Below, one piece after another: positions 783 to 58,487 of a stretch of DNA of 64,000 bases. How positions within the stretch are numbered: the first letter of the stretch is position 1; each line of letters starts with the position of its first letter. This stretch comes from Primulina eburnea. Lineage: Eukaryota; Streptophyta; Magnoliopsida; Lamiales; Gesneriaceae. The notes beneath the pieces were generated by a model. The model did not search any database. It saw only the letters and a program-made list of their open reading frames with translations, and was not told where the DNA came from. A program made the position numbers and the translations under genes. The stretch is taken from the NCBI RefSeq assembly GCF_022965805.1, contig NC_133101.1:44801642-44865641 (forward strand). The letters run 5' to 3'.

Positions 783-988
783 CGCGCATATGCGCGCCCA
801 AAGTCACGCATATGCGCCAGTTCTTAGAACCAGCATTTTTCCTTCTCGCGCATATGCGCCACTTTTCTCGCGCATATGCGCCAAGCCTACTGTCCTTCCC
901 GCGCATATGCGCCATCTACGTCGCGCATATGCGCCGAACCTTCTGGACATGTCGCGCATATGCGCGCATTTCTTCGCGCATGTGCGCC
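783..988 (-). promoter_or_regulatory. Cluster of eight GCGCATATGCGC palindromes in the LTR of A
   Basis: Eight copies of a palindrome near CGCGCATATGCGCG have central CATATG (or CATGTG) boxes centred at 789.5, 811.5, 853.5, 875.5, 906.5, 928.5, 959.5 and 981.5. Distances are 22, 42, 22, 31, 22, 31 and 22 bp. The copies form four pairs 22 bp apart, and every step is near a whole number of helical turns. The cluster lies about 50 bp upstream of the minus-strand TATA run, so it is probably an upstream promoter element; the binding factor is unknown. Confidence 0.8.
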
Positions 989-1140
989 ATGGCTTCGGCC
1001 CTTCTCATTATTTGATGTATTTTCTCGTCTTTTCCGGTCCGATCTGTTTCGTCTATAATCAAATCGATTATCACCAATAGATTATAATAATCATCGCTAA
1101 CTCATTTCGAATTAACGGGATAAATTCCTCGGGCATTACA

Positions 1141-1156
1141 TTTCTCCCCCTCTTAG
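1141..1156 (-). other. Polypurine tract of element A
   Basis: On the minus strand AAGAGGGGGAGAAA abuts the TGTAATG start of the 3' LTR. This is the expected primer for plus-strand DNA synthesis. Confidence 0.8.
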
Positions 1157-3232
1157 ATTTGAGTTCGTCCCCGAACTCATAAACAATCAATTCAAAGATA
1201 TCAGAAGAAATGCATAACAGAGTTTAAACCAAAACTCAAATATCTGATTCCAGTCTGGAATACGAATTTCCTAAGTATAATATCATAATACTTCTCCAAT
1301 CCTTCTAACAGAATCAATCTTGCCTTACTGGTTATACAACGTTCGTATAAACCAATCTACAGCTCATCACATATCCGTATCATCAGCTGTTATCAAATCT
1401 GTTTATCTCGTACCAAGATATATACAATCTTCAGTTTCATATACCAATCGTCATCATCCGACGTTGGTTTCTTAAATCTGTCCATTCTGAACTGTCTTAA
1501 TAGCTATTGTCATACGGTAATAACAAGTCATATCAATTAGTGCCAACATCCAGCACTAAAAATGTATCAACGTCTCCCAATATCTGGATAACACATTCTG
1601 ACTGCCTGTCAATCTGTGAAACAATCTAAGAGAGAGTTCATGATATACTCTATCACGAATACAACTCAAACAAAATCACAATCTGACATAATCTACTGGG
1701 GCATTCTGATCTTTCTGACCACTTTTCTGACATCGATCTGTGTCATTTGGTCATGTTTGTACGTTATCTGGTACAAACTGATAGATATAGATTGAACAAT
1801 CTGTCAATCACAATCATATCATATCTCAATCTGAAGAAAATGACGGTAATTTCATTACGAAAACCATAGAAATGTACTCTCATTTCTATTTAGAACTATA
1901 CAATTCTGTAATAAATCTTCTGAGTTCTATCTTTCTATCTTTTCTGTTAGCGATTTAGACATATCAGTACAATTTCTGCCAACATTTCAATACATTTCTG
2001 TTATAACTGATCTCATCTGTCTATATCACAACTATCTGTTCGAATACAATACAGTCTCAATCATCAGACTGAACACTGAATCCATGACTGTAAGCTTCTG
2101 ACAATATCTGTTCTTTCTGATTCGAACTATTTGATATACACAAATCAGTTAATAACATAAATTAAAGAGGAAATACCTACCTGGTATTCGGCTTTAACTA
2201 TCACTATCAAGCTTTGCTGTACAATTCTGACACATCTGATATCACAGAATAATCAATCTCATACAACATACACAATCACATATCTGTTACTCTGATCGAC
2301 ACTCTGTTCTGACTATCGATATTGAGTTCTAAATATTCTAATCAGCTTTTTGAATTGTTATCGTTTCGAAATTAGCTCTGGTTCGGACTGTACAATATAA
2401 TCTTTATTGTCTACTATCTGTCTCGACCACTTATTCCGAATATCATCAATATTCAATCAGATTCAAAACATACTAAATTCATAAACCGCAACTGTCTGAC
2501 ACTGATGTCAACCTCAGCTGACTAATCACGGTTTAACTCTGGTAAAATCACCAAACATATCATATTCAGATATAACACATCCTGAATGCAATCTGTCTCA
2601 GTCAGGATTCGAAATTTTAACAATTTCTAATATCAGTTCAAGGCTAAAATCAATCTCTCGGACTGAAATCAGATCTGAAGTCTCATCTGGGGAAAGCATC
2701 AATAACTTTCTTATTATTGGTAAATCAACCAACGATAGACTCAGCTTCAGTAAATCAACTGAATACATAAGGAGTCACTCTGCTCCTTTCTGTAATAATC
2801 GAGTCATAGCTATTACGAATATCAAAGAAATTCTCAGTCTAGAATTCTTATCGTACAATATCCATCTCTTGGCCATCTCAGGTTCAATTCTCACCATCTT
2901 CTGGAATTAATCTATGGTAGCTATGTACTTGATCAGCATACCAATATTAGTAATGCAGTTCCAAAATCATAGAACACCAGTACAACACAAGCTACTACAC
3001 AATTTAACTTGATCTCATTCTCATCCTACTGTAGTATACAAGATCTAACAGAAATCGCTGATACAAGATCTTTTCCCAAAGGAACAGAAACAATTACTAC
3101 AGTAAATAGGGACTCAACAAATAATGCATACATCAATGCAAGTCTTTCAGAAATAATAGTATGTGAAGCACCGGTATTCCTCAATACATATGCAGGATAA
3201 TCAAACAAATCAGTTACCCGCAACATCATCAT
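1157..3232 (-). pseudogene. Ruined pol of element A (protease trace, deleted RT, integrase trace)
   Basis: The minus strand from 3232 holds an aspartic protease trace in which the catalytic DTG reads NTG (NTGASH, near 3170), followed by stop-riddled sequence resembling the protease-to-RT linker (YSVDLLK near 2760 and EIDFS near 2650). Reverse transcriptase is then missing, and the homology resumes in sequence that matches the post-RT part of elements B and E. Below 1860 there is an integrase trace alignable with element B but full of stops. No long open frame exists between 1157 and 3000. Family assignment is by resemblance; the exact deletion ends need an alignment to an intact relative. Confidence 0.7.
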
Positions 3233-3285
3233 CTGGTGCTTCCTGAGCCTGCTCCTCGGTCAAAGCAAATACTCTGGTCTGCTGT

Positions 3286-4600: not shown

Positions 4601-6186
4601 TGTTGTGGGGACCCGGACGCTAATCATGTTCTTAATCACCATTGGGACTAATTAATCAATTATAAAACAGGGTCTAAATTTTTTTTTTTTAAAAATACAA
4701 AGCGGAAACGTAATGTAATTTAATCAAATTACATATTAAACATGAACATACAAATCTTGTGTTATCTTCAAGAATTCAACTAGGTTCAACTACATATCAG
4801 TGCTGAATCCTATGTTGCTTCGAAGCCCGGATCTCCACGCTATCTAATCTTCTCTCATCCTCTTCTTGACCCTGATCCAGCCCCACCTGTTGTCATGCAC
4901 ACATACAAAACAAGACAACAGCTGGATAACTCCGGTGAGATATAAATATCCCAGTATAAACAATGTAAACATGCAGTCATATAAAAGCATATACGAAAGC
5001 ATATAAGAAGTATTCATAACATGTCTCAAATCAGAAACATAAATTCATATCAAACATTCAATAATCATGAATGGCATAAACAATGTAAATCAACATGTCA
5101 TATCAGACTCAACTCAACCGACGCGTCGTCTCAGACTCGACTCCACTGACGCGTCGTCTCAGACTCGACTCAACTCTATCCTAGGGATCCCGATGTCTGG
5201 ATATAGGTATTATATCGAATCTCAGTCGATAGGAATGAATCAATCCCTAAACGGCATCGATATAATTAATATCTCCAGTATCTGGGCGAATCAGCCGCAG
5301 AATTGACGACTCAGTCAATAACCCGACGAATCAGTCGGTAATTAGGCGAATCAGCCAATAATCAGACAACTCAGCCTGTAATTAAGCGAATCAGATTAAT
5401 TTTAGACGAATATGTCGATCACCAGACGAATCAGCCGGTGACTAGGCGAATCAGCCTATAATAATACGAATCAGTCAACAACCCGACGAATCAGCCGGTG
5501 ACTAGGCGAATCAGCCTATGACTCAACGACTCAGTAATCAATACATACAGTCGGTATCTAAGCAAATCAATCAATGACTAGCGAATCAGCAGTCATTACA
5601 TGCAGTGGCTATAAATCAATAGACTACAATCATAAGTCTCATCAATTGCAAATGTCAATGCAATAAATGAAAGTATGTGATTTAGGGAGACTCGAGTCAA
5701 ACCTCACTCGAGTTGTGCAATCCCAACTCGACATTAATTTATACCTTTCTTTCTGATACCCTGGCTCTGTCGAAGTCTCGAACCCCAAGCCTGTCAATAC
5801 TCAGTCTGACAATAACAATATCGAGGGTATGGTATCAATACACCACTCAGTTATTACTGGATACAAACAGAATTCAATCAAATTCTGTTTCAACAATATA
5901 ACATCATAATCTCAATATATCCAGCCCTATCATATCAGTCAGATATCAATTCTAATATCTCATAATCAATAACAACTCAATTCTGATATCAAATCGGCTC
6001 CAAAACTACTCCGAAAATCATAACAATTTCATATTCAGTCCGTTTCTTAATCTGACTTCGATTCTATGATGTCTAATATGTCAAGAACAACATATATGAG
6101 TTCCATTCAATTCTGACAATATCATAATTTCAAAGCATTTCAAAACGTAGCAAAAATTACGTCCAGTTGTAGCCTACGTCGATAGG
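4601..6186 (-). repeat. 5' LTR of element A, truncated
   Basis: The LTR starts TGTTGTGGGG at 4601 (plus-strand view) and matches the 3' LTR up to about 6187, where it breaks into element K sequence. The missing part is the promoter end: the palindromes and TATA run are gone, so this LTR can no longer drive A. The surviving part holds a degenerate minisatellite (5284-5592). Confidence 0.88.
5284..5592. repeat. Degenerate minisatellite in the LTR of A
   Basis: A word near GCGAATCAGCC recurs about every 22-26 bp, often as GGTGACTAGGCGAATCAGCC, in over a dozen diverged copies. Shorter versions occupy the same LTR zone in elements E (42752-42840, 62935-63010) and B (31365-31470, on the opposite strand). 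It is therefore an LTR component that expands and contracts. Confidence 0.75.
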
Positions 6187-6214: not shown

Positions 6215-6220
6215 AGTTTT

Positions 6221-8975: not shown

Positions 8976-9213
8976 CGCGCATATGCGCGTTCATGCCAAG
9001 CGCATATGCACGGAGTGGGCAGAGAACCTCGCGCATATGTGCGACATGGATCCGCGCATGTGCGCGAGGGTACCTGAGAGTTGTGAAAAATTGTGTAGGA
9101 CCTCGCGCATATACGCGGAAGAGGTGCGCGCATATGTGCAAGCTGCTGTGAAGGTTACGCGCCGAGACATTATGTCTCGCACATATGCGCTAAGGATGGT
9201 CGCGCATATGCGC
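8976..9213 (+). promoter_or_regulatory. Cluster of eight paired GCGCATATGCGC palindromes in LTR S
   Basis: Central CATATG-type boxes are centred at 8982.5, 9005.5, 9036.5, 9059.5, 9110.5, 9133.5, 9184.5 and 9207.5. Steps are 23, 31, 23, 51, 23, 51 and 23 bp: four pairs at exactly 23 bp, with pairs three or five helical turns apart. The last box is about 52 bp upstream of the TA run at 9260. Confidence 0.82.
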
Positions 9214-9259
9214 GAGACGTTCAACAATTAGGAAGAGCCACTTGGTCATGGCATGCAAG

Positions 9260-13500: not shown

Positions 13501-14308
13501 ACTACATGTGTGGCACAATTGAGCCGCAACTTGGAATCACCCGGTTCTAGGACAATCCGAACTGAAACTGACTGATAGTCCAGCTCTCGACTATAAATTG
13601 AGAACTACATCTCGTTCCCTTATCTTGCATTTAATTCGGTTTTTAGTTTGTGCTCTTATTATTTTATTCAATAAAAAGGAAAAAAATGGGGGAAAATCCG
13701 TGAAGCTTACGCCCGGGCGGACATTTACATCTGCCCGGGCGCGTCCTTTTTCAACCAAATTCTTAAAAAAATGTCGTGAAGCTTCCGCCCGGGCGGACAA
13801 TTACATCCGCCCGGGCGCAACCCTTTTCAATTTTTTTTTTAGCAAAAAGCCGTGAGGTCTCTGCCCGGGCACCAATTCACATTTGCCCGGGTACGCTCTT
13901 TTTAATTTTTTTTCCCCAAAGCCTTGGAGTGTTTGCCCGGGCGGAAACTTACATCTGCTCGGGCGGATCGCCCAGATTTGATATTCTGCAACCCATTTTT
14001 CTTCTTCCCATTCGAACCCTACTCCTCCCCCTTTCAATTTTATGCGCCTCCTCTCTCAATCTCGCTCAAATACCTTGTCTTGTGTCAATTTCAGGTACAA
14101 TTAAGTGTCACCACCTTTACTAAACATCAAGGCATCAATTTTCCGGTCACCACGTTGTTTTCCGACCACCTCTGAAGGAACTCCGGCCATCTCTAAAATT
14201 TATGTTTGCCGCCGCCCCTTTCCCACCACCTCTGCAATTTCCGGCCACCACGACATCCATCAACGCTCCTCCTAATCCGGGATACTTGTGCTTCTCACAT
14301 AACCCACG
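13501..14308 (+). other. Spacer between pol and the env-like ORF of K
   Basis: There is no coding sequence here. It holds a four-unit repeat with paired palindromes (13710-13966), then a pyrimidine-rich leader. TGTGTCAATTTCAGGTAC near 14077-14094 resembles a 3' splice site, which would fit the spliced env mRNA described for Athila-type elements; this is inference. Confidence 0.6.
13710..13966 (+). promoter_or_regulatory. Four paired CGCCCGGGCG palindromes before the env-like ORF
   Basis: Cores CCCGGG (one reads CTCGGG) are centred at 13714.5, 13736.5, 13790.5, 13812.5, 13866.5, 13888.5, 13938.5 and 13960.5. Steps are 22, 54, 22, 54, 22, 50 and 22 bp. Each unit is about 75 bp: two palindromes around ACATTTACATC, then a T-rich arm. 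Similar pairs occur in the 3' LTR of K (16764-16917), although the surrounding sequence is not otherwise alike. Confidence 0.85.
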
Positions 14309-15448
14309 ATGGCACCTAAGAAAGCTCGGGTGAGTCATGCCTCTTCGTCTTCATCGTGTAATTATCATTTATTTGTTAATAATACCGCTAGGGAACGCTA
14401 CGAAAATGCAAAAATACATAGAGCTCCGCTTCACGAACGTGGTTTCCAGCTTGAGCAATACATATGTATTATAAATCAAATTGAGAATAGAAGCTGGGGA
14501 AAATTTTGTCGCCAACCGCAAGCCGCGGTGGTACCAGTGGTGAGGGAATTCTATGCCAATGCATCTGAGAGGAGCGATGGTAAGGCCTTTGTGAGAGGGA
14601 ATTTGGTCGATTTTAGTTCAGCGGAGATTAATATTGTGCTTGAGACACCGGCGGTGGATGACTCGGTTTATGTGTCATGGACAACAGAACCTAATTTAGA
14701 CTTGATGATGCAAAGAATCTGCTATCCGGGGTCTCCGTGGAAGACACCTGGCTCGCGCACTTGTTTTGCAGAGAAATATTTGCTAGTCCCGGCTGCGATG
14801 CGGTATGCATTTCTGGCCACACGTTTGATGCCAGTCGGGCACACTAGCGAAGTCTAGAGGGAGAGGAGGTTGCTGCTTTACGCACTGATCACTCACATGC
14901 CACTCAATGTGGGCAGGATAATTCATACGCAGATCCAGCTGAGCATTCATAATCCGAATGTGGCGTTGTTCTTCCCCCACATTATCACCGAGCTATGTGC
15001 GGGCGTTGGGGTCGTTTTTCTGGATGACGATGAGTGGTTGCCACCGACCAAGGCCTTTGATGACGCTAGCTGGATACAGAAAATAGCAGTGCAGCGGAAG
15101 GCTTTCCCGCAGTTTGGCCCTATATAGGACGGTTTTACTTTCGATCCCGTGCCACAGCAGCCACCACCACCAGCCCCACGACCTAGCCGTCGCCTTCTGC
15201 AGGATCGGATGGATGAATTTGGTGCCTTTGCGGACCATCAGTTACAGTGGCAGGCTGTGAGCCAGACGTATCAGACTGCCACTAATGCCATGCTGCGTCT
15301 ATCCCTGAGCCACAGTGGTATTGACTCAGCCCTTATGCCACCGCCTATGCCAGCTTTCTCGCCACCATTTCAGTTCCACTATGCCGATGCTCCAGAGCCG
15401 GATGCTGGTGTCATTCCCCCAGAGGCACACGAGGAGGATGATCTTTGA
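14309..15448 (+). pseudogene. Env-like/extra ORF of K (putative plant transposon protein family), two stops
   Basis: One frame of 380 codons starts at ATG 14309 (MAPKKARVSHASSSSS), with in-frame TAG stops at 14855 and 15125 and no frameshift. The first part (residues 25-180: ARERYENAKIHRAPLHERGF, VREFYANASERSDGKAFVRG, AEINIVLE) matches the plant-specific domain often annotated as putative plant transposon protein, usual in the third ORF of Athila elements. The C-terminal part is Pro-rich and acidic. Its function is not established, and I see no signal peptide or clear membrane segment. It ends about 1.1 kb before the 3' LTR. Confidence 0.85.
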
Positions 15449-16570: not shown

Positions 16571-17956
16571 TGATATAGGTGGATTTTACTTGTTTTTCAT
16601 GTCATGTTTTGTCCCATTGTGTTGTATTTATCGTTTAAATTGCATGCATTTTGTCACATTTTAGTTTATATTATGTTTTGTTATTAATCATGTGTCTCGG
16701 TGTGAAAATATAGGAAATTCATGCAAAAATGAAGAAAAAAAGAATTATTTTGCGAAGGACTTTCGCCCGGGCGCCTGAGAGCTGTGATAAAATCAATTTT
16801 TGCGAAATTCATCCGCCCGGCGGAAACTTATGTCTGCCCAGGCGCGTCAAAGAAAAATGGAAATACAGAATCTGCGAAGACCATCCTGCCCGGGCGGAAA
16901 CTTATGCCGCCCGGGCGTGCCTGTATTTTTGGAAAAAATTGTGGACGATTCCTTACCTTATTTTCTGGATATGGATGATATGGAAAGGGGAGCACGAAAT
17001 CAGGGGAGGATTCAGACTTCATTGGAGAGCCACCGCATGCTTTGGAGAGAATTTTGTGCTTGGATTGAAGATTTGAAGATTTCCGGGCTTCGCTCTTCGT
17101 GTTTTTCGTCAATTCTAGTATCTCTAATTTAGTTTCTGTCATTTAAACTTAGTTTTGTCTGTTTCTACAATGAATTCGAGTAGCTAAACTTATATTATTT
17201 GTTTGGATTTAAGGGGATCCTACCCCGAACTTTGATTTGAATTAATTTATATTTTGATTGTTGCATTATTCTTGATTATATTATTGTTTTATCGTGTTGT
17301 TAGAGCGTAGCTAACTTTAACAACGTTTTTATATTGCGAGTGAGTTCGAGAGAATAACTTGTGATAGGAACGAGTAGTATAATCCATAGATCTACAATTT
17401 ACATAGACATTTGAAATTGGATACGCACCGATAGTCATAGTCCTAAGGGTCAAAAACTAGGGGATTTCATAGATCGACATGCAATTAACTCTTGATAAAT
17501 AATTAAAGATATTTAATTACTTCATTGAGTAGAATTAGTTTGGAATAGCTCGAGAGAGTGTGTTCAATTGAATAGAAAATCCTGTCGGAAGCATATAATC
17601 AATACCGAACGAATTAATTAATTAACGAGGGGTAGGTGAACCGATATTCCCAACAAATTCATCTCTCATTGAATTTTAAATCCACCATTTTAGATATTTT
17701 ATTTCATTATTTAATTCCTGAATATTTTTATTTGCATGTTTCTTTGATCATAATAGTAATAAAACAACCAATCAATTTTCGTTGCTAAAGATTTAATAAC
17801 TAAAAATAATAATTTTCAAACACAGTCTTCAGTGGAACGACACTCGTACTCCTGTACATTATACTATTACTTGATATCGTGCAATTGCGATTAATTTTTG
17901 ATCATATAAAACCATATTTTTATTAAGGATTTCACAATGCAAGTTTTGCTCGATCA
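16571..17956 (+). repeat. 3' LTR of element K
   Basis: It begins TGATATAGGTGG after the purine tract and ends GCTCGATCA; the end matches the 5' remnant at 6183-6214. At 1386 bp it carries paired CCCGGG palindromes (16764-16917). I do not see a clear TATA box downstream of them. The start is set by the purine tract and TG rule only, because the 5' copy is lost. Confidence 0.75.
16764..16917 (+). promoter_or_regulatory. Paired CGCCCGGGCG palindromes in the LTR of K
   Basis: Cores are centred at 16768.5, about 16818.5, 16839.5, 16891.5 and 16912.5. The pairs are 21 and 21 bp apart, the units 50-52 bp apart. One palindrome (CGCCCGGCGG) has lost a G, which explains a 21 where the internal copies have 22. 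The spacer words AAACTTATGTC and AAACTTATGC resemble the internal units at 13710-13966. Confidence 0.8.
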
Positions 17957-30228: not shown

Positions 30229-32144
30229 TGTAATGCTCGAGATTTTATCACTGTAATCAGATATTGATTAATTGATAGAATTGAGATTTTAGGGGCTAAA
30301 TTAGGACGTTAGAAGAGAAGCCGGGCGTCGGTGCATTATAAACACAAATTTTGTACAGAACATCTGGCGCCCGAGCGGTAGAAAATGACCGCCCGAGTGC
30401 TAGTGCATCATAAGTTTAATTTTTTGGACAGAACGTCTGGCGCCCGGGCGGTAGAAAATGATCGCCCGAGCGCCAGAGTTCAATAAGAATAATGTTGGAC
30501 AGAAGGTCCCGCGCCGAGCGGTAGATTTTAACCGCCCGAGCGCCGACTGAAATGAAAGAAGAATAATCCACGTTTCTTCAGCATGCAAGTTGATGTATAT
30601 ATATGTACTAATCCTTCATTTCCTCCCAACAAAGAAACGAGAAGAGCTCCAGGGAAGCTACGAGAAATCCTTACGCCTTTGCTCCTAATAGAATTCTGAT
30701 TTTGCAAGATCCAACCGTTAGAATTTCAATCCAACTTCAGTACCGTGTTTCTATTGACGAGAGCTTCAACTGAACGTAAGTTTTCTTATGTTCTGATATG
30801 TTTTGAAATTATGATATGGAAGAAATCTTGATATGACTAATATATGGTGTTCTTGAGTTATTAGACATCGTATAATCGAAACCAGATAGAAGAACAGATA
30901 CCGTATGAAATTGTTATGATTTTCAGAATTGAATTTTATTGGGATTATACAGATTTGATATCAGATTGAGTTTGTTGATTTGTTATGAGTTGTTGATGGG
31001 TATATACTGATATTGTATTGCCGGTATTTTGAGATTGTATTGTTATGCCATCGACAGATACTAGATTGAGATTGATTCTACCAGAGTTACTTCGAGTGGT
31101 ATTGTGATATTATGCTTCTTGAATTATTATTCCAGACTGGAATCAGAATCCGTAGAAGAAAGATTAGAGTTGTCAAGTGTTTGTGCTACGACATAAAGGT
31201 ATAAATCAATGTTGATCCGAGATTGCACAACTCGAGTTTGATTTAATTTGAGTTTTCCAAAAATCACATACTTAATTGTCATTGCCTCGATATGTTGCAA
31301 TGTCTGATATTGATATGCTTATTCAATTGATTTATAGTTAAGCATATGTTATGTACAGAGTCATGGGCGGATGTGCCTAGTCTTTGAGTTGATGTGCCTA
31401 GTTTTTAGGCGGACATGCCTAGTCTTTGGGGGAAATCCCAAGTCTTTGGTAGAAGTGCCAAGACACCGGACGTTTGGTCATATCGATGTTGTATAGGAGT
31501 GGAGTGACTTCTATTGCAGAGATTCGATATGGACATGACCAAAGTCCGTAAATAAGAACGTACCGCCATCACGATAGGGAGAGTAGGTGGGAGATTGTTA
31601 CGCTCTTATTCAGATTTGGGAACCCTATATTAGGAAAGAGTCGAGTCAGAGATTATGAGTCAGAGTTGATTTACAGTTTTACATCGATTCATGTCTTTCA
31701 AATTTGATACATGTTATTTATATTTGCTTCATGCTTTTATATCTATTTTTATGATTGCATGTATACATTGTTTATACTGGGAGTGTTATTCTCACCGGAG
31801 TTATCGGCTGTTGTCTTTTTTGTATGTGTGCATGACAACAGGTGGGACAGGATCAGTGTCAAGAAGAGGATGAGAGATGAAAGTTAGCGTGGAGATCCAG
31901 ACTTAGAAGTATATCTGTTTCATCACTTGTCATGTAGTGAATGAACAATAGTTGTTATGATTTACTTTTGTACAGGACTTGTACTTAGATTTGGATATTG
32001 ATCTTGTAAATGAAATAAGATTTATTTCATATGTTGTGTACTCTTGTATTTTTTTTAAAAAAAAATTTAGACCCTGTTTATCCTAATTGATTGTAATTAT
32101 TCTCAAGAACGATTAAGAAATGAATTAGTGTCTGGGTCCCAACA
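30229..32144 (+). repeat. 5' LTR of element B
   Basis: It begins TGTAATGCTCGAG and ends GGTCCCAACA, then the primer site. It carries CGCCCGAGCG palindromes (30320-30545), a TATA-like TATATATATG at 30596, a short version of the AATCAGCC/GCCTAGTC minisatellite (31365-31470) and a hairpin (31551-31610). Confidence 0.92.
30320..30545 (+). promoter_or_regulatory. Paired CGCCCGAGCG palindromes in the 5' LTR of B
   Basis: Cores CCCGAG (one CCCGGG) are centred at 30372.5/30394.5, 30445.5/30467.5 and 30515.5/30537.5, each pair exactly 22 bp apart, with units about 72 bp apart and a lone half-unit near 30322. Pairs flank GTAGAAAATGAC-type spacers. The TATA-like run starts 58 bp after the last core. 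The 3' LTR has the same layout (36295-36515). Confidence 0.82.
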
Positions 32145-36198: not shown

Positions 36199-38041
36199 TT
36201 TAATGCCCGAGATTTTATCACTATAATCAGATATTGATTAATTGACAGAATTGAGATTTCAGGGGCTAAAGTAGGATGTTAGAAAAGAAGCCGGGCGTCG
36301 GTGCATTGTAAACACAAATTTTGTACAGAACATCTAACGCCCGAGTGATAGAAAATGACTGCCCGAGCGCCAGTGCATCACAAGTTTAATTTTTAGGACA
36401 TAACGTCCGGCGCCCGGACGGTAGAAAATGCTCGCCCGAGCGCCAGAGTTCAATAAGAATAATGTTGGACAGAAGGTCCCACACCCGAGTGGTAGATTTT
36501 AACCGCCCGAGCACCGACTGAAATGAAAGAAGAATAAGCCACGTTTCTTCAGCATGCAAGTTGATGTATATATATGTACTAATCCTTTATTTCCTCCCAA
36601 CAAAGAAACGAGAAGATCTCCAGGGAAGCTACGAGAAATCCTTACGCCTTTGCTCCTAATAGAATTCTGATTTTGCAAGATCCAGCCGTTAGAATTTCAA
36701 TCCAACTTCAGTACCGTGTTTCTAATGACGAGAGCTTCAACTGAGTATAAGTTTTCTTATGTTCTGATATGTTTTGAAATTATGATATGGAAGAAATCTT
36801 GATATGACTGATATATGGTGTTCTTGAGATATTAGCCATCGTATAATCGAAACCAGATAGAAGAACAGATACCGTATGAAATTGTTATGATTTTCAGAAT
36901 TGAATTTGATTGGGATTATATAGATTTGATATCAGATTGAGTTTGTTGATTTGTTATGAGTTGTTGATGGGTATATACTGATATTGTATTGCCGGTATTT
37001 TGAGATTGTATTGTTATGCCATCGACAGATACTAGATTGAGATTGATTCTACCAGAGTTACTTCGAGTGGTATTGTGATATTATGCTTCTTGAATTATTA
37101 TTCCAGACTGGAATCAGAAACAGTAGAAGAAAGATTAGAGTTGTCAAGTGTTTGTGCTACGACATAAAGGTATAAATCAATGTTGATCCGAGATTGCACA
37201 ACTCGAGTTTGATTTAATTTGAGTTTTCCAAAAATCACATACTTAATTGTCATTGCCTCGATATGTTGCAATGTCTGATATTGATATGCTTATTCAATTG
37301 ATTTATAGTTAAGCATATGTTATGTACAGAGTCATGGGCGGATGTGCCTAGTCTTTGGGTTGATGTGCCTAGTTTTTAGGCGGACATGCCTAGTCTTTGG
37401 CGGAAATGCCAAGTTTTTGGTAGAAGTGCCAAGACATCGGGCGTTTGGTCATATCGATGTTGTATAGGAGTGGAGTGACTTCTATTGCAGAGATTCGATA
37501 TGGACATGACCAAAGTCTGTAAATAAGAATGGACCGCCACCACGATCGAGAGAGTATGTGGGAGATTGTTACGTTCTTATTCAGATATGGACATGACCAA
37601 AGTTTGTAAATTGATATTTGCTTCATGCTTTTATATCTATTTGTATGATTGCATGTATACATTGTTTATACTGGGAGTGTTATTCTCACCGGAGTTATCC
37701 GACTGTTGTCTTGTTTGTATGTGTGCATGACAACAGGTGGGACATGATCAGGGTCAAGAATAGGATGAGAGATGACAGTTAGCGTGGAAATCCGGACTTA
37801 GAAGTATATCTGTTTCATCACCTGACATGTAGTGAATGAATAGTAGTTGTTATGATTTACTTTTGTATAGGACTTGTACTTAGATCTGGATATTGATCTT
37901 GTAATTGAAATAAGATTTATTTCATATGTTGCGTACTCTTGTATTTTTTGTTTTTTAAAAAATTTAGACCATGTTTATCTTAATTGATTTTAATTATTCC
38001 CAAGAACGATTAATGTATGAATTAGTGTCTTGGTCCCCACA
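36199..38041 (+). repeat. 3' LTR of element B
   Basis: It matches the 5' LTR closely, ends GGTCCCCACA at 38041, and is followed by the second GGTGC. It is 73 bp shorter than the 5' LTR, mainly through a rearranged zone near 37585-37615. Confidence 0.92.
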
Positions 38042-38688: not shown

Positions 38689-40119
38689 TGTAGTAGCCCG
38701 AATTCCAAATTGGGTAATTAACGGAGTAATGGTGATTAAGAAGGTTTAATGTGTAATTTTGACCGAGTCATGACCGGACGGACCGAAGATGGTTCGGAAG
38801 CACCGAAGAGTTCGGAAGGTCCGAGGTGGGTTCGGTGGATCCGATCATGAGGTGTCAAGAGCAGCTGGACACGTGCATGTTCGGACGGTCCGAAGTGTAT
38901 GATCGGAGGATCCGATCATGAGCTGTCAAGAGCCGATGGACACGTAAGAGTTCGGACGTTCCGAAGAGGGTTCGGACGATCCGAACATGGCCTATAAATA
39001 GTGGTCGGATTTCCTCATTTTGACTCGCCAATTCAGAGAATTCCATAGCATTTCAGTCGTTTCTGACAGGTTCTAGTCTTGTTCCGAGATTTGGGCACTA
39101 GCGGGGAGCTGCTGGTCTTGTAGCAGAGCTGTGCTCTAGTTGGGAGCTAGCGGCATCAGCGGGCTAGCGACGGACGAAGGTTTGGAATTTTATCAGTATT
39201 TATCTCAGGATTATCTAGTTAAGTCTGGTAGATAAGTTTAGTGATGGTTTTCACTTGATGAATAGGCTTGGATTAGACCTGTTGTCTGGTTGTTCCAGTG
39301 AATTAGGATTGCTGTGATAGAGGTACGAAAGTACTATCCGAGATATCCTGGTTGAGTATACATTCTTATATGTGTTGCATGATTATGTGGTGCATTGATA
39401 TATGTCATATGATGCATGCTATTATGTCACGTTTATTACTGCACGTTGCATTTCATGTTGAGCCGTATCTTCTTCGAGATAGCCTTTACTGTTGAGCTGT
39501 ATCTCTTTCGAGATAAGCTATATCTTGGGGCCGCTCAGCCCTGTCTTGTGGACGCATGGACACCGAGAGTACACAGTGGCCGACGGGTCGGGAGGGCTTC
39601 GGTGGTCCGGGACATTTTAGGTCCACGTCTGTCTTGTAGTGGATGCAGTGACCCAGAGGTGTACCGCGCGGCACTATCCACTTGGCGCCTCTAGACTGAG
39701 CATTGTTGAGATCCTTTTGTGACTCCTGTTTCTTGACTATCCCGGTATCATGATCATAGCATGTGCATTTCATATAGGTCTGTATACTCATACTTTTGTA
39801 CTGGGCGTTCTTATCGCTCACGTCCTCGGTTTTGTTTATTCTTGGACACCCCATTCCCACGGGGCAGGCCTCAGGTTGGACAGCTCAGGAGGAGCAGGAG
39901 GAGGACGTTGAGTAGCTGGTTGGTTTAGTTTATCGGTATTGTTTTGATTCGATATGGTTGTATTGGATATTTTATTTGGAGTTATTCTAGACTTCGATTG
40001 GGTTGTATAACTATTATTTTGTTGTTGACTATTTCCGCTGTTATCTCTGATTATTGTTAATTAGGTTAATTGCATGCTTAGTTTTTGATTAGTAGGTGAT
40101 TCTGGAACGGGTCACTACA
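38689..40119 (+). repeat. LTR 1 of mini-element D
   Basis: It begins TGTAGTAGCCCG and ends GGGTCACTACA. It contains TTCGGANNNTCCGAA palindromes (38773-38985), a TATA box TATAAATA at 38993-39000, and a twice-repeated GTATCT-TTCGAGATA hairpin (39461-39515). Its 93-125 codon ORFs recur in every copy only because the LTR is repeated. Confidence 0.93.
38773..38985 (+). promoter_or_regulatory. Array of TTCGGANNNTCCGAA palindromes in the LTR of D
   Basis: Eight palindromes are centred at about 38780, 38800, 38818, 38838, 38887, 38909, 38958 and 38978. Steps are 20, 18, 20, 49, 22, 49 and 20 bp. The best copy reads TTCGGACGGTCCGAA. A linker containing GGTGTCAAGAGC and GGACACGT repeats between units (about 70-bp period). 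The TATA box is 15 bp after the last palindrome. The same array is in the second LTR (40576-40788). Confidence 0.82.
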
Positions 40120-42044: not shown

Positions 42045-43857
42045 TGTTGTGGGGACCCGGACGCTAATTCATGTCTTAATCATTATTAAGGTCAATAACA
42101 ATTAAGAAAAGTGGGACTAAAAATTTTCTTTTTAAATTATAAATGCGGAAACATAATGTAATCTATTTAATATACATGTCAGTATAAAGGTACAACGTAT
42201 GTACTACAGATATCTATCTTAACTAGGTTCAGCATATATACATCAAGTGCTGGATCCTACTCTGCTTCTCGGCCCGGATCTCCACGCTAACTATACTCTC
42301 TCATCCTCTTCCTGATCTTGATCATGTCCCACCTGTTGTCAAATACACATACAAACAAGACAACAGCCGGATAACTCCGGTGAGAATTACATTCTCAGTA
42401 TAAATCATGTATACATGCATTTCATATAAACAGTTATAAAAGCATGAAATAAACATTCATAACATGTATCAAAATCAGAAACATGAATCAATATAACTCT
42501 AAATATAACATGTATAAAATCCGATACATGAATCAACACAAACTCTGAATCAAACTCAGTGACTCATGGACTCAGACTCGACTCGTCCTAATCTAGGGAT
42601 CCCGATCGGAATAAGAACATACCCCCACCTACACTCCCGATCGGGGTGGTGTCATGTTCTTATTCACGGACTTTGGCTCTTTCCATATCGAACACCAGTA
42701 ATAGAAGAAACTCCAATTCTATCCACTCCGATATAGCCAAACGTCCGGCGTCTTGACGAATCAGCCACAGACTAGGCGTATCAGCCCTGGCGAATCAGCC
42801 AACAACTGGGCGAATCAGCCCCGGCATATCATGCCAAACCTCTGTGACAATGTGCAATGGGCCAATGAAGATTCTGTCACTATCTGGCACCTCTGTCATG
42901 AGATCAGTCGTCTACGACTAGGCGCCTCAGCCTATGACTCAATACATAAATCAATGGAACAAACATATCAATTCATTAATTGCAATTATCAATGCAATAA
43001 AATAAAGTATTTGATTTAGGGAAACTCGAGTCAAACCTCACTCGAGTTGTGCAATCCCAACTCGACATTAATTTATACCTTTCATTCTGTTGCTCTGACT
43101 CTGTCAAAGTCTCGAACTCACTGCCTGTCAATATAATTCTGGCAATAACATATTGAATATATCGTATCAATATACAACTCAGTTCAGAACTTGTTCTGAT
43201 CAATACTCAAATCAAACATAATCTGATCAATGTCACGACAGAACGATACAATCATAATCAATATTGAATCTGATTAACACCAATCTACTGATGCTTCGAC
43301 GGTATAATAATACAATCTTGATAACCCCATCAATCTCAACATCACAGACATATTATCACGAGACATAATCAGTATCAATACAACTCATAACCCCAGCGAT
43401 AACAGATCATAATCTCAAATCGGTACAATCTCAGTCATATCACTTCAGAAAATCATAACAATTGTATATACAGTCTGTTCTTCGATCTGACTTCAATTAT
43501 ATACTGAGCAGTATATGTAGAATACAATATATCAATCAAATCATAATTCCCCCAATATCATAATTTCACATCATAACAAAACTCAATGAAACTTACGTCC
43601 AGTTGTAGCTGTCATCGCTAAGAACTCGGTACTGTACTCAAATTCAAATTTGAACAGATGGATTGTGCGTGAAATGAAATTTACTATCAAGAAACTTGAA
43701 CCTTCCTCGGAGGCTTTTCTCGTTCCTTTCTTGAAGAATTGCAGGCTTGTGTATATATATTTATCTATATATATACGTACACGCTGCATGGTTAAGGGGC
43801 AAGTGGCGATTTTTCACTTTGCATGCCTCGCGTATATGCACGACCCGTAGCGGCGCA
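42045..43857 (-). repeat. 3' LTR of element E, distal part
   Basis: It starts TGTTGTGGGGACC at 42045 (plus view), as in A, and matches the 5' LTR at 62235-63990. It holds a hairpin (42609-42665), a short minisatellite (42752-42840) and a TATA-like run (43751-43778). It ends in the middle of a palindrome where G inserted. With the right part (58073-58487) the LTR totals 2228 bp. Confidence 0.92.
42609..42665 (-). repeat. Hairpin in the LTR of E
   Basis: AATAAGAACAT (42610-42620) pairs with ATGTTCTTATT (42654-42664) with further pairing inward (CCCCACC/GGTGG). The 5' LTR copy is at 62793-62847. B has a related hairpin at 31551-31610; A and S lack it. Confidence 0.75.
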
Positions 43858-44814: not shown

Positions 44815-44816
44815 AG

Positions 44817-45706: not shown

Positions 45707-47087
45707 TGTAGTAGCCCGAATTCCAAATTGGGTAATTAACAAAGTAATGGTGATTAAGAAGGTTTAAGGTGTAATTTTGACCGAGTCATGACCGGACGGA
45801 CCGAAGATGGTTCGGAAGCACCGAAGAGTTCGGAAGGTCCGCAGTGGGTTCGGTGGATCCGATCATGAGGTGTCAAGAGCAGCTGGACACGTGCATGTTC
45901 GGACGGTCCGAAGTGTATGATCGGAGGATCCGATCATGAGCTGTCAAGAGCCAATGGACACGTAGCGTTCGGACGTTCCGAAGTGTTGTTCGGAGGATCC
46001 GAACATGGCCTATAAATAGTGCTCGGATTTCTCATTTTTGACTTGCCAATTTCTTGAGTTTTCTCTCATTTTGGAGAGTTTGGAAGGTTTCTAGGGTTAG
46101 TTGTTGGTCGAGCGATAGCCAAGAGCTGCCAGGAGTAGTAGCGTAGCGGCGCCTGAGTTTCAAGGCAATCGACATCAAAGGGCTGTCGACGGACGAAGGT
46201 AAACCCTAAACCTTTGGTAGTACTAGGGAGTACTGGTTTTGCTAGTCGAGCATGGTAGTATTGATTGAGTATGCTTTTGATGCGTAGGCTTGTGCTAGAC
46301 CTGATTAGCGGTGTTGCGTAAGGCTAGGCTTGCTGTGATAGAGGTACGAAAGTACTATCCGAGATATCCTGGTTGAGTATACATTCATATATGTGTTGCA
46401 TGAGTATTTGCTGCATTGTTATATGTCATATGATGCATGCTATTATGTCACGAGTTATGATGCATATTACATATCATGTTGAGCCGTATCTCCTTCGAGA
46501 TAGCCTTTACTGTTGAGCTGTATCTCTTTCGAGATAAGCTATATCTTGGGGCCGCTCAGCCCTGTCTTGTGGACGCATGGACACCGAGAGTACACAGTGG
46601 CCGACGGGTCGGGAGGGCTTCGGTGGTCCGGGACATTTTAGGTCCACGTCTGTCTTGTAGTGGATGCAGTGACCCAGAGGTGTACCGCGCGGCACTATCC
46701 ACTTGGCGTCTCTAGACTGAGCATTTTGAGATCCTTTGTGATTCCTGTTTCTTGACTACCCTGGTATCATATCATAGCATGTGTATTTCATATAGGTTTG
46801 TATACTCATACTTTTGTACTGGGCGTTCTTATCGCTCACGTCCTCGGTTTTGTTTATTCTTGGACACCCCATTCCCTCGGGGCAGGCCTCAGGTTGGACA
46901 GCTCGGGAAGAGCAGGAGGAGGACAGTGAGTATCTGGTTGGTTTAGTTTTCAGTACTATTCTATTTCGATTGGGTTGTATAACTATCATTTGTTGGTATT
47001 TTCCGCTGTTATCTCTGATTATTGTTAATTAGGTTAATTGCATGCTTAGTTTTTGATTAGTAGGTGATTCTGGAACGGGTCACTACA
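45707..47087 (+). repeat. LTR 1 of mini-element F
   Basis: It begins TGTAGTAGCCCG and ends TCACTACA. Palindromes lie at about 45797-46005 and the TATA box at 46011-46018. The region after TATA differs strongly from D between about 46030 and 46320, then matches again. Confidence 0.92.
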
Positions 47088-53820: not shown

Positions 53821-54367
53821 GGCCAAGTCGAGGAAAATGAAAGGACACTTCCTTAAGTGACGATTACTCTACCAAGCTTTAGAATTTTCTTAATTAATCT
53901 GGCTTATTTTATTGTCATTTTCTTTAATGCATCTATTTAGGAGGAATGGTGGTTTAAGAGGTTAACTGAGAAGACAGTTGTTAGTGAATTCTCAACTGAA
54001 AGGACTCAGTCTTACTAACTGATCGTTCAGTTGAATATTCCACTAATCTTCTCATATAAGTTAACTAATTAAATCTATTATATTCCAAATCAAATGACGT
54101 GACTGTCTGCTAACTCATGATGAATTTCAGTTTATAACGTGGACACATTTTTAACCGCTCAAAATTGTACACACGCTTATAGCACACGTACACTCTTTGC
54201 TTTTTCAAAATTTCTACGGACTGACACGTGTCCAGAATTTGAATAGTCACGTACATATGTACCATTACCCGCTTCATTTCAGTTTCACCTTACAATTATC
54301 CACAAATTTTTGAGAGCAAGAACTATTCTATTCTTCAATTTCGTTTCAGGAACTCACTCACTTATCA
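53821..54367. other. Non-coding gap before the env-like ORF
   Basis: No gene is seen. The region would be the leader or splice zone of the env-like mRNA. TTCGTTTCAG at about 54343-54352 resembles a 3' splice site 16 bp before ATG 54368 (inference). Confidence 0.4.
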
Positions 54368-56985
54368 ATGGCAACCCAAATTCCCGCTTTTATGCTGAAC
54401 GCTATGGCTATCAACTTTGGATCCATCTTATCCTTCGGCGATGCTGAAGTCAAGAAGGTGTTTTAGAAACTTGAAACTGCTGGACTCAGAACATTTTTGG
54501 TACAATCCTCACAGGACATCTATCCCAAAGAACTTCAGGATTTCTACTCCACCGGCATGGTTGATTCTGAGGGTTACATTAATTCTACTGTCAATGGTCA
54601 GTTGCTGACCATCTCTGAAGACTCTCTTGGGGAATTATTTTCTTTACCCTCTGATGGTTTGGCACAACTTTCAGATGTTAAAGCATCTGATATTGAAGAG
54701 ATGCAAACCCTTCTCTCTGCTGATGGACGGAAGATTAAGGTTTCCGATCCTAAGAAGGAACTGAAGCATGAAATTCAGTTGCTTGCTGATGTAGTTGCTA
54801 AAGGGCTTTTGGCAAAAGCTGGATCATTTGCTGCCCTCACCTTGGAGAAGTTTCAAGCCATTTCTGTTATTATGGCTGATCGCAAGATCAACTGGAAGTA
54901 CCTTATCTTTAACACTCTGAAGAATATGTTTCTGTCTTCAAAACAGTCCAAGGGTTTTGCTGTACAATTCAGTTATCTGTTGAAAGTAAAAGGATTAGTG
55001 GCTGATGATTCTGAAAGGTCATCGAAATTTAAGGTGTTCAATGCAAAGAACACGATGCCAATCAAAACCAAAATGGATATAACTCCTGCTCAGTTAGTGC
55101 AAATCAAACAGGAGATTGGGACTCAGCTAGCAGCTCCTAAATCAGTTAAGAAGGACAAAACGTTGGCTCAACTGAAGGTTGCCAAAAGAAAATTAGTGTT
55201 AAGTGCATCTGAGTCAGAGAAGACTCCACCCCCTCAGATTGCGAAGAAACCAAAAACCCAAAGGGTTAAAACAACTTCGGAGGTATCCATTCCTATTGAT
55301 GCAATGATTTCTACAACAGATCAGCAGTCTATAGAAGCAGTTCCTCTGCAGATCATTCCACAAGAAGCTTCAATTGGTACCAAAAAGGAATCAGTTAGGA
55401 TCAAAGCTCCTCTAATTCAGATCTCTCGTCCTACTGGTGTGGCACCTGCTAGACCTAAAGGCATAAAAATTGTAGAGCAGGTGGAATCTACTCGAACAGG
55501 ATTGGAAATTCCTCACATCTTGAGTACTGATAAAGGGAAAGGGAAGTTGATTGAAGAGCCCAGACCCTCCAACCCAATTCAGACTCATATTGACCTTGTA
55601 TGGGCAAAGGTTAACAGTTTTGCTGCTTCAAAAATTAAGTCCTATGATGCTTGGATAGCCTATCGCACTGAAGTTTTTGCCAAGCAATTGAAGAAGAAGT
55701 CCGAGCTGAGCAAATTCATCAAACTGGAGGCCTTTGTCCTCAAGACAGTCAAAGCTGCCTCAATTGCTCAAGCTATGTAGAGGAAAAGTTATCTATTTGA
55801 TCAAACAAGAGCGAAGAAGTTGGTTCAAATTGTTGGCAAGCTGAAGACCAACTACTTACCTACAAGCCCTACTGCCTATGCTGATCAAGCTGTAATTACT
55901 CAGCTAGACACTGATCTTATAGGGCTACTTTCTAAAATCAAGTTTTGGGAATTGAATCAAGAATTGGTTCTCCATCAAGGAAATTCAGATGATGACGACG
56001 AGGAAATATTTGAAGAAGCATCCTCTGACAAAACAGAACCATCATCAGCTTTAGTCATTGTTCCAACTGAAGAGCCAGTTCGTGATAAGCCTCTTTCACC
56101 TCCTGGTGAACAACAACTGTATACCGAAGCTGAGCTCTCTTTCGCACACATTGATGAAGTTATTCAGGCCGTTGTGGAAGAATCCCAGATTAGTGCACCC
56201 GTTTCTGACAAAGTTGATCACTCTGCTGATCAAATCAATCTAGAGGTCACTTTTTCTTCAGAAGAACCTGTTCAGCCAGATCCATCTACTGATCAGGTTA
56301 TCCCAACTGATGTGCCAGTTGATTCAATCAATCACCCTTTAGAGGCACCAGTTTCAGTTTTTTCACCATCTGCTGAACCAAATCCTCCTTCACCACCTCG
56401 GGATCAAGGAGAAATCACTGCTGCTGATACTTCAGTTCGAGATGCTGCTGAAACAATCTCAACTGATCAAGCCTTGATAATTTCTGAACTTACTACAAAT
56501 TAACCAAGCACTTCTCGAGAGTCTCATCCTCCATCTTCATCAGATTTTGATCTTATTTTTGAAGAAGTTCAACATATGCAGGACAGTATGAGTCAAATGA
56601 TTACTGCCATCTCCAAGATTCAAAACACGCAATTATCGCATACTCTGAAGTTGGACGATAATCAACAGTCTTTAAAAAATCTGAAGGATATAAAATCTGC
56701 TGTTACCGCTCTTTCATTTCCAGTTAAAGATATTCAAAAAAATAGAGGAATTATTTCAAGTCTGACTGCCACTCAAAACTCTATTAAACAACGGGTCGAC
56801 AGTGTGGAGTCACTTGTATCAAGAAAAATCGAACTGCTACAATTCACTATGTCTACTGCTATCGATAACATTTCATCCTCGGTCCTTTCTATTGACGTTC
56901 GGAAGCTATCTCTCAGATGGATCAGTTTGACAAAAAGGGGGAAGAGATCAAGGAGATCTTAGAACAGCAGAAGAAACAATAAGAG
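54368..56985 (+). pseudogene. Env-like third ORF of copia element G, three in-frame stops
   Basis: One frame runs from ATG 54368 (MATQIPAFMLNAMAINFGSI) with stops only at about 54464 (TAG), 55778 (TAG) and 56501 (TAA). The N-terminal third (to about residue 220) is a folded-looking domain (EDSLGELFSLPSDGLAQLSD, KINWKYLIFNTLKNMFLSS). The middle is Lys/Pro-rich, then a Ser/Pro/Glu-rich stretch and a C-terminal coiled coil (QDSMSQMITAISKIQN onward). A late frameshift near 56900 moves the end to QMDQFDKKGEEIKEILEQ. I see no convincing signal peptide or transmembrane span, so 'env' is by position only. Such ORFs are typical of Sireviruses. Confidence 0.82.
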
Positions 56986-57103
56986 CAGTATCTATTGTAT
57001 TTATTTGAAGAAATGTGAATTCAGTTGATTCAGTTAATCGACATCTTATTTTATCTACTTTGAATTCAAATCAAGTATCTCTTACTATAGTTTTGTTAAA
57101 CAC

Positions 57104-57118
57104 CATAAAGGGGGAAAT
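57104..57118 (+). other. Polypurine tract of G
   Basis: AAAGGGGGAAAT immediately precedes the 3' LTR. Confidence 0.88.
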
Positions 57119-58067
57119 TGTTGAAAACGAAATTCCGGCGTTTGACAAAAGATTTACCAACTGAATTTGACCAACTGATCGACGTAACTGAACACGTCAT
57201 TAGTCAACTGATCGCTACAACTGAAGTCTATTCCTTGGTCAACTGATCCTTACCAGCTGATCTCTCAGCTGCACACGTCATCAGTTGAAAGCAACAACCG
57301 ACAAATAGTACAGCGATCTGCAACTGGTAGTGGCTCGCCGCATTTCAGAATGAACAGTGTACGATTGTCAGAATATATCGACATGGCAATCAACGGTTAG
57401 AATATTCAAATATTTTTAATGTTACCGTTGAGAGGGAAGCCTATAAATAGTCGAAGACAGCAGCTGAAGAACATCCGACTCTCAGTTATCTTATCTTACT
57501 TGCTGTTAAGCTGCAAAAATATTCACTCACATTCAGAAATCAAGCTCACGCTTATCAGTTATATCAGTAGTATTCTAGACTACGCTCTTGAGCTTATATA
57601 ACACTTTGTAATCGATTGATAGATTTTCCAAGTAGTGCTAAGATCAGTTAAGATCTGTAAAAGTGTTGTATACTAAGATTTTCAGTATTGGCAAAGTGAT
57701 AAGTCCAAACTGAAGTGGGTCAGTACACCTTTTTGTATTTGATCAAAGTCTTTTAGTGAATATCCTATTTGCGTGATAGAAGGGGTGACGTAGGAGTTAC
57801 TCAAGTCTCCGAACATCCAGAAACAAATTGTGGTGTTATTACTTTCAGTTATCATTTTCAGTTAGATACTCTATCTTTCAGTCAGTTAGTTTTCCGCAAC
57901 TGTTTGTTCAGTTTAACTGATTGTTATTGACCGACGAGATATTTAGATTCAGTTTGTAACACAACTGAAATCAGTTTATCGAATAATAATTTTAATTGAG
58001 CAGTGTTTATTCAACCCCCCCCCCCCCCCTTTCTAAACACTCTTCACGCGATTCACCGATCCTTTCA
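57119..58067 (+). repeat. 3' LTR of copia element G
   Basis: It begins TGTTGAAAACG and ends GATCCTTTCA, followed by GCGCA. It lacks the 13-bp CCAGCAACTGAAT-type duplication of the 5' LTR and has a longer C run near its end. Confidence 0.93.
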
Positions 58068-58072
58068 GCGCA

Positions 58073-58487
58073 TATGTGCGAGTCACACTGTCTCGGCACC
58101 CATGCTTCCTCAACAGCTCGCGCATATGTGCGCACTAACACCGCGCATATGCGCGAGACCTACTGTCTCCACATACCCATACTCGCGCATATTAGCACCT
58201 CCACGCCACGCATGTGCGCCCAACTCTCTGGACTCGGCCATTAGCTTCTGCATAACTCACGCATATGCGCGTGCACGTCTCGCGCATATGCGCGAGGTCT
58301 TCTGCCACCCACGCGCATATGCGCGGCTCCTTGTCGCGCATGTGCGCGAGGTGTTCTGTCCTCACACATATTCCATGTTTTCTCTCGTCTTTTTGGTCTA
58401 ATATGTTCCTTCTATATTTACCTTAATTACTCAATAATCATTTCAGATTAATCTCAGATTACGATAAATAAAATCTCGGGCCTTACA
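58073..58487 (-). repeat. 3' LTR of element E, proximal part with palindrome cluster
   Basis: It continues the LTR from 43857 after the G insertion and ends CCTTACA at 58487, the LTR start in minus sense. Palindrome boxes are centred at 58073.5 (split by G), 58125.5, 58148.5, 58190.5, 58213.5, 58264.5, 58287.5, 58318.5 and 58341.5; the partner of the first is at 43835.5. Every pair is 23 bp apart. Steps between pairs are 52, 42, 51 and 31 bp. Confidence 0.88.

What the first reader, a model, noticed from the sequence alone, without database searches (positions are those of the whole stretch)
783..58345. Four LTR groups share one promoter architecture: palindrome pairs about 22 bp apart
Seen: the LTR group A/S/E uses GCGCATATGCGC, B uses CGCCCGAGCG, K uses CGCCCGGGCG and D/F use TTCGGANNNTCCGAA. 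In each, palindromes come in pairs with centres 22-23 (A/S/E), 22 (B), 21-22 (K) or 18-22 (D/F) bp apart, and pairs repeat about every 53-76 bp upstream of TATA where one is visible. Athila-like and Tekay-like elements are not close relatives, so the shared layout with different words suggests convergence or module exchange. Inference: two dimeric DNA-binding proteins side by side on one face of the helix, with element-specific recognition. RNA hairpins in the 3' U3 are an alternative. I do not know of a description of this.
Basis: partly seen in the sequence, partly recalled or inferred. Interest (0 to 1): 0.9.

Follow-up and report, generated by a model that had tools for sequence, protein, structure and literature searches.

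The report
Paired palindrome arrays in plant LTRs
Several jumping elements in this plant-like DNA carry rows of paired, mostly symmetric DNA words near their start signal; the rows look like landing sites for regulatory proteins, and two related element families keep the same frame but use different words.

Summary
Nine arrays examined (A, S, E, K1, K2, B1, B2, D, F) hold family-specific words in pairs 20-23 bp apart (A 22 in 4/4 pairs, S 23 in 4/4, E 23 in 5/5, K 21-22, B 22, D/F 20-22). The words occur nowhere else in the window. In S and E the spacers inside pairs differ like shuffled letters, yet keep their length. Corrections: B's usual word is not a palindrome; K's main array is not in an LTR but between pol and a downstream ORF; D/F spacing is looser; helical phasing is not significant. 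New: a box (about GGACAGAAGGTCT) precedes most A/S/E pairs. A matrix trained on A/S/E alone ranks B's three in-register boxes 1-3 of 840. So A/S/E and B share the frame by descent and differ in word, while B and K, with a different primer-site type, share a word. The kind is already described for copia Sireviruses (PMC2829016). The Ty3/gypsy setting, pair grammar and word switch did not turn up in my searches. Likeliest function: U3 enhancer arrays bound by dimeric proteins.

The parts
783..987 (-). Array A: 8 GCGCATATGCGC words in 4 pairs, 22 bp apart, in U3 of the A element's LTR (LTR starts ~1140; TATA run ~731-712)
8976..9215 (+). Array S: 8 words in 4 pairs, 23 bp apart, in solo LTR S (8846-10753; TSD GCTGC read from sequence); TATA ~9261
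58073..58349 (-). Array E, major part: pairs 23 bp apart; LTR starts ~58487
43829..43857 (-). Array E, remaining part: last pair, split by a copia insertion lying inside a palindromic word (TSD GCGCA); TATA-like ~43775
30353..30545 (+). Array B1 in the 5' LTR of element B (30229-32145): imperfect words CGCCCRRGCG in pairs 22 bp apart; TATA-like ~30596
36323..36516 (+). Array B2, 3' LTR of element B (36199-38043), three pairs 22 bp apart
30353..30365 (+). Frame box in B1 unit 1, found by the A/S/E matrix; further copies at 30426-30438 and 30497-30509, and in B2 at 36323-36335, 36396-36408, 36467-36479
936..948 (-). Example of the same box in array A (unit at sense centre 213.5)
9017..9029 (+). 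Example of the same box in array S (unit at sense centre 190.5)
13710..13973 (+). Array K1: 8 CGCCCGGGCG-type words in 4 pairs, 22 bp apart, inside element K between pol and the PF20167 ORF
14303..14857 (+). Stop-to-stop ORF downstream of K1, PF20167 (E 3.2e-22); frame ends at a stop at 14855-14857
16764..16917 (+). Array K2 in the K 3' LTR (~16570-17957): two pairs 21 bp apart plus one single word
38773..38986 (+). Array D (5' LTR 38689-40120): 8 TTCGGANNNTCCGAA-type words; TATAAA at ~38993; second copy in the LTR at 40492-41923
45791..46005 (+). Array F (5' LTR 45707-47087), same layout as D; second copy in the LTR at 47422-48803

Best explanation
These are U3 enhancer (upstream activating) arrays of plant Ty3/gypsy LTR retrotransposons. 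Each unit holds two sites for a dimeric DNA-binding protein about two helical turns apart; in the related elements A, S, E and B a further box precedes the pair. Units multiplied by tandem duplication and were then kept by selection on words and pair spacing, while most spacer sequence drifted. Inferred: host transcription factors bind as cooperating dimers and drive transcription from the TATA box, and in K also from an internal promoter ahead of the PF20167 ORF. Between A/S/E and B the frame was kept and the word replaced. Shown here: words, spacing, position, box register. Inferred: binding, activation, selection, identity of the factor.
For: Last word centre 15-61 bp upstream of a TATA-like site in A, S, E, B, D, F. 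Words restricted to the arrays. Pair spacing: 13 of 13 A/S/E pairs at 22 or 23 bp, while gaps between pairs run from 31 to 52. Inner spacers 24-43% identical against 85-96% for words, at shuffled level in S and E. Box register: ranks 1-3 of 840 in B1 and in B2, against 21-834 for five control windows. RNA reading not favoured: 8 G-U against 10 A-C deviations between words of a pair, 7 against 9 within words. Same layout, including boxes upstream of env, is in print for Sireviruses (PMC2829016). By analogy: an Olsenella contig (L009), found by searching pairs of the A word at any distance from 18 to 42, holds two such pairs at 22 and 23 bp in a setting that looks like bacterial operators.
Against: No binding, expression or methylation data. 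D against F, the only between-element pair close enough to count substitutions, shows no clear protection of words (arms 2 of 96 changed, spacers 4 of 92). D, K2 and F are weak or not significant on the stricter spacing statistic. Copies within an array and related families are not independent. Duplication explains part of B and K. Not every A/S/E unit keeps the box (leave-one-out ranks 16, 38 and 41 in three of 13 units). No known factor was matched to the words.
Confidence: 0.62

Rival explanations
1. The arrays matter as RNA: pairs fold into hairpins in 3' U3 transcripts that feed small-RNA production and silencing, as proposed for maize Sirevirus palindromes.
For: The arrays fold strongly on either strand (-63 to -160 kcal/mol over 174-321 bases; no shuffled control was run). 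PMC10760457 passages report that excess small RNAs map to clustered palindromic motifs in Sirevirus LTRs. Changes between the two LTRs of B concentrate in words and are mostly transitions: 13 of 90 word positions against 4 of 106 other array positions, 14 of 17 transitions in the array, as expected of methylated, silenced DNA.
Against: No excess of G-U over A-C deviations (8:10 and 7:9). Sense RNA is 8-11 kcal/mol more stable than antisense in A, S, E, within 3 kcal/mol in K1, K2, D, F, and 17 kcal/mol less stable in B2. Hairpins do not need a fixed 22-23 bp spacing.
Confidence: 0.15
2. A neutral by-product: one unit was tandemly duplicated by slippage and the apparent grammar is what is left.
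For: B1, B2 and K1 inner spacers are still 61-92% alike, A above shuffled level; unit lengths cluster at 53-76 bp; D against F gives no sign of word protection.
Against: S and E inner spacers are as different as shuffled letters while word and length are kept; gaps between pairs did change length; the box keeps its register in B although the word changed.
Confidence: 0.12
3. The words bind an element-encoded or arms-race factor that removes silencing, as VANC proteins do at VANDAL transposons, so each family evolves its own word.
For: Different words in one frame between related elements. VANC targets are short motifs in tandem repeats that differ between related elements (PMC5735166 passages). 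Arrays are CpG-rich: o/e 1.21-1.71 against 0.77-1.20 in the rest of the LTRs (in K2 only 1.24 against 1.14).
Against: No candidate factor domain among the 10 ORF segments scanned of the 18 listed, though two of the 10 matched no family at all; B and K, of different primer-site type, share a word; D/F have little coding sequence.
Confidence: 0.1

Closest known systems
Sirevirus repeated motifs (RM), Bousios et al. 2010, PMC2829016 (section 9 and passages read)
   Same: Palindromic, element-specific words, at least eight per element, most LTR copies in the upper half of the LTR, upstream of TATA, CpG-rich, with extra copies just upstream of the env ORF. Their table lists Osr9 TTTTCGGACWTRTCCGAAAA (like D/F) and Sorghum AGGGCGGCAGTGCCGCCCT (like the inner half of a K or B pair).
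   Different: Those are Ty1/copia and reported as Sirevirus-specific, absent from the other ('classic') elements compared; these are Ty3/gypsy. In what I read no pair spacing or flanking box is described. The A/S/E word lacks the CGG-CCG core.
[quoted passage not shown] 2016 (paper not held; recalled, and seen only as cited in PMC10760457)
   Same: Palindrome clusters in the regulatory part of the LTR, linked to hairpins and small RNAs
   Different: Copia only; small RNAs could not be tested here
VANDAL/VANC target arrays, PMC5735166 (passages read)
   Same: Tandem short motifs in non-coding TE regions; related elements use different words
   Different: DNA transposons with an element-encoded reader; the term 'palindrom' does not occur in that text
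Repeated upstream boxes of tobacco Tnt1 and Tto1 LTRs (recalled)
   Same: Tandem cis elements in U3 that drive transcription
   Different: Copia elements; not compared here

Membership tests
Sirevirus-type palindromic RM arrays | Palindromic repeated word | tested here: met
   A, S, E, K, D, F yes by their consensus words; B's consensus word is not self-complementary
Sirevirus-type palindromic RM arrays | CGG-CCG core (12 of 13 listed Sireviruses) | tested here: inconclusive
   D/F yes; K and B only across the pair; A/S/E no (PMC2829016 Table 3)
Sirevirus-type palindromic RM arrays | Cluster in the first half of the LTR upstream of a TATA box | tested here: met
   A, S, E, B, D, F: last word centre 15-61 bp before a TATA-like site; no TATA-like site follows K1 or K2 in the segments searched
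Sirevirus-type palindromic RM arrays | CpG-rich island | tested here: met
   CpG o/e 1.21-1.71 in arrays against 0.77-1.20 in the rest of the LTRs (K2 1.24 against 1.14); copia LTRs 0.91-0.93; no formal island caller was run
Sirevirus-type palindromic RM arrays | Additional words upstream of an env-like ORF | tested here: inconclusive
   K1 lies upstream of a PF20167 ORF; that this ORF is env-like is not shown
Sirevirus (genus) | Ty1/copia pol and Sirevirus signatures | tested here: not met
   A, E: Ty3_capsid and Retrotrans_gag; B: weak Ty3_capsid (20.5 against cut-off 29.1) and weak Chromo (19 against 25.1); K: Retrotrans_gag, RT_RNaseH and Asp-type PBS. D/F gave no Pfam match. The copia element at 43858-58067 has one palindrome call in its U3 against 0.9 expected
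VANC-type anti-silencing targets | Element-encoded sequence-specific reader | tested here: inconclusive
   No such domain in the 10 ORF segments scanned of 18 listed, two of which matched nothing; elements are decayed and the search was partial
   Only PBS type and domains were seen; the lineage names are recalled

The most novel reading that the evidence does not exclude
Plant Ty3/gypsy LTRs carry a composite regulatory cassette (box, word, 10-12 bp spacer, word) whose geometry is inherited while the palindromic word is exchanged as a unit, so that related elements change, and unrelated elements share, the factor that reads them. LTR promoters would then evolve by switching specificity within a fixed frame.
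Probability: 0.35. Interest if true: 0.75.

Novelty: new variant of a known kind. Interest (0 to 1): 0.52.

Why it matters
PMC2829016 could name no factor that reads the palindromic LTR repeats of Sireviruses and no proof of their role. Arrays in Ty3/gypsy elements with a kept frame and exchanged words give a direct test: swap the word, keep the frame, and ask whether the responding factor changes. The K element also adds a Ty3/gypsy case for a possible internal promoter ahead of a further ORF.

Tried and rejected
Helical phasing: A/S/E gaps between pairs (31, 42, 51-52) look like multiples of about 10.4 bp, but three random distinct gaps do as well in 25% of draws. A loose dyad in the box (centre -13.5; p 0.0045-0.021 by dealing arms among 13 units, best of many centres tried) is only suggestive. 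D against F protection of words: no signal. Word-free palindrome calling: the count exceeds the largest of 40 shuffles in A (8 against 4), D (6 against 5) and F (5 against 4); in S, E, K1, K2, B1 and B2 it does not (5/5, 5/5, 5/5, 3/5, 1/3, 2/2).

Relatives elsewhere: the K RNaseH protein in viral contigs gave 11 pattern matches, none confirmed. Pair patterns gave 0, 6 and 1 viral contigs and 4 bacterial contigs. Ten of these 11 loci carry one pair each, inside open frames of at least 100 codons, at distances 18-27, and were taken as unrelated; L009 (Olsenella) carries two pairs at 22 and 23 bp and looks like bacterial operators: an analogy, not a relative. Homologues of the K ORF: 3 proteins of 45 candidates, no DNA. 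No plant genome collection could be searched.
Full report
WHAT THE WINDOW IS. A stretch of plant-like DNA made largely of nested LTR retrotransposons, mapped by self-comparison, reading, ORFs, Pfam and primer sites. A (minus strand; LTR start ~1140), S (solo LTR, 8846-10753), E (minus; LTR 42045-43857 plus 58068-58487, second LTR from 62235) and B (30229-38043) are related Ty3/gypsy elements; A, B and E have iMet-type primer sites. B carries a weak chromodomain match (19 bits against a cut-off of 25.1). D and F are short elements with two LTRs each and iMet-type primer sites; a gag-like remnant of D gave no Pfam match. K runs from an Asp-type primer site at 6221 to a 3' LTR at about 16570-17957, with only 34 bases of its 5' LTR left; S lies inside it.

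THE OBSERVATION. All occurrences at up to one mismatch, 23, 14 and 20 for the three words, lie in the arrays or in the second LTR copies of D and F. Pair spacing is 22 in all 4 A pairs, 23 in all 4 S pairs, 23 in all 5 E pairs (one read across the copia insertion), 22 in all 4 K1 pairs, 21 in both K2 pairs, 22 in all 3 B2 pairs, and 20, 20, 22, 20 (D) and 20, 20, 22, 21 (F). B1 shows two clear pairs; the first word of its third is damaged. Eight arrays were tested against random placement for steps of 20-23 bp: p 0.0015-0.016 in seven, 0.04 in K2. For recurrence of one exact distance: p below 0.007 in A, S, E, K1 and B2, 0.035 in D, 0.09 in K2, 0.51 in F. These tests are not independent, since families and units are related. 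The copia LTR has one palindrome call against 0.9 expected.

CORRECTIONS. B's common word is not a palindrome; the B pair is an imperfect inverted repeat. K1 is internal, between pol and an ORF matching PF20167. D/F are looser. Helical phasing is not established: random triples of gaps do as well in 25% of draws.

IS IT JUST DUPLICATION? In A/S/E the words are 85-96% identical between units and the inner spacers 24-43%. Against shuffled letters the spacers are at chance in S (0.24 against 0.26) and near it in E (0.34 against 0.29, reached by 0.106 of shuffles), and above it in A (0.43 against 0.29, reached by 0.015). Lengths inside pairs are fixed, while gaps between pairs run from 31 to 52. 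So word and spacing outlived the spacer sequence. In B1, B2 and K1 the inner spacers remain 92, 61 and 71% alike (K2, two units, ungapped: 36%), so those arrays may be younger duplications. D and F differ at 2 of 96 arm positions, 1 of 24 loop, 4 of 92 spacer and 4 of 107 flank positions, which decides nothing.

A SHARED FRAME. Aligning the units showed a box upstream of the first word of most pairs, roughly GGACAGAAGGTCTC. A matrix from 13 A/S/E units (13 columns, 20 to 8 bases before the word centre) scored every position of B on both strands: the three in-register B positions rank 3, 1, 2 in B1 and 2, 3, 1 in B2, of 840 each. Five control windows taken elsewhere in the unit rank 21 to 834. 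Of all window positions 0.004-0.03% score as high as the B boxes. B1 and B2 are two LTRs of one element and B's units are duplicates, so this is close to a single observation, but a strong one. Leave-one-family-out ranks within A/S/E are 3, 2, 1, 16 (A, of 860), 38, 1, 41, 3 (S, of 884) and 2, 1, 9, 3, 5 (E, of 1046): clear in most units, lost or faint in three. In K1, K2, D and F the best matrix scores are 9.1, 7.1, 7.2 and 8.4, against 9.3-13.3 for the B boxes; K1's best lie on the other strand and overlap the word, so none is in that register. Hence A/S/E and B inherited one frame and now hold different words, while B and K, which differ in primer-site type, hold nearly the same word at nearly the same spacing. 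The four groups of the finding become three histories: A/S/E with B, K, and D/F.

MECHANISM. Position 15-61 bp upstream of a TATA-like site, word conservation and near-fixed pair spacing point to protein binding sites on DNA. Deviations from symmetry show no preference for G-U over A-C (8:10, with 12 others, of 182 between words of a pair; 7:9, with 2 others, of 156 within words), and folding energies do not consistently favour the sense strand, so RNA hairpins are not needed, though they are not excluded. Arrays are CpG-rich (o/e 1.21-1.71 against 0.77-1.20 elsewhere in the LTRs; little difference in K2), and the two LTRs of B differ mainly by transitions in the words (14 of 17 array substitutions; 13 of 90 word positions against 4 of 106 others), as methylated silent DNA would. 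That a dimeric factor binds each word, and two cooperate, is inference; no factor is named. An analogy came from outside: searching prokaryote contigs for two A words at any centre distance from 18 to 42 gave 5 pairs in 4 contigs, at 21; 22 and 23; 19; and 27 bp. The contig with two pairs (L009, Olsenella) has them at 22 and 23 bp, one pair outside any open frame of 100 codons and one at the very beginning of a long one, as operators of a bacterial regulator would lie. It says that such geometry suits paired dimers; it says nothing of descent.

WHAT IS KNOWN. PMC2829016 (section 9 and passages) describes element-specific palindromic repeats in Sirevirus LTRs upstream of TATA, CpG-rich, with extra copies upstream of env. 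It reports them as Sirevirus-specific and absent from the 'classic' elements compared. K reproduces both locations in a Ty3/gypsy element. PMC10760457 (passages) reports small RNAs over such palindromes in maize Sireviruses; the 2016 paper it cites is not held. PMC5735166 (passages) is the model for words changing between related elements. The ten paper searches brought up no account of such arrays in Ty3/gypsy elements, of pair spacing, or of a kept frame with a changed word; several listings were cut (20 of 22, 30 of 58, 15 of 21, 10 of 64 papers), and only passages or sections of four papers were read.

VERDICT. A real and ordered feature of a kind already described in another superfamily, with two additions worth following: the pair grammar and the word switch inside a kept frame.

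Noticed in passing
43853-43857 and 58068-58072: The copia element (43858-58067) inserted inside one of the palindromic words of LTR E, with target duplication GCGCA. PMC6911290 (passages) reports a weak insertion preference of plant LTR elements for palindromes.
   Followed up: partly
13710-14857: Internal K array followed by a pyrimidine-rich, TATA-less stretch and a PF20167 ORF: a candidate internal promoter, like the repeats upstream of env in Sireviruses.
   Followed up: partly
9010-9240 and 58120-58170: The box before the first word is often itself a loose dyad, for example GAGACATTATGTCTC in S and GAGACAGTAGGTCTC in E; both arms differ together between units (p 0.0045-0.021, best of many centres). 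TGTCTC is recalled as the auxin response core.
   Followed up: partly
L009: 1794-1827 and 5203-5237: An uncultured Olsenella contig holds two pairs of GCGCATATGCGC at 22 and 23 bp, the same word and distances as LTRs A and S/E, in operator-like places.
   Followed up: partly
6186-6221: Only 34 bases of the K 5' LTR remain, joined directly to a truncated LTR of element A.
   Followed up: no
38689-41923 and 45707-48803: D and F are short two-LTR elements with little coding sequence and LTRs 99.9% and 99.4% identical, so recently inserted.
   Followed up: no
8841-8845 and 10754-10758: Solo LTR S is flanked by the duplication GCTGC inside the coding region of K (read).
   Followed up: no
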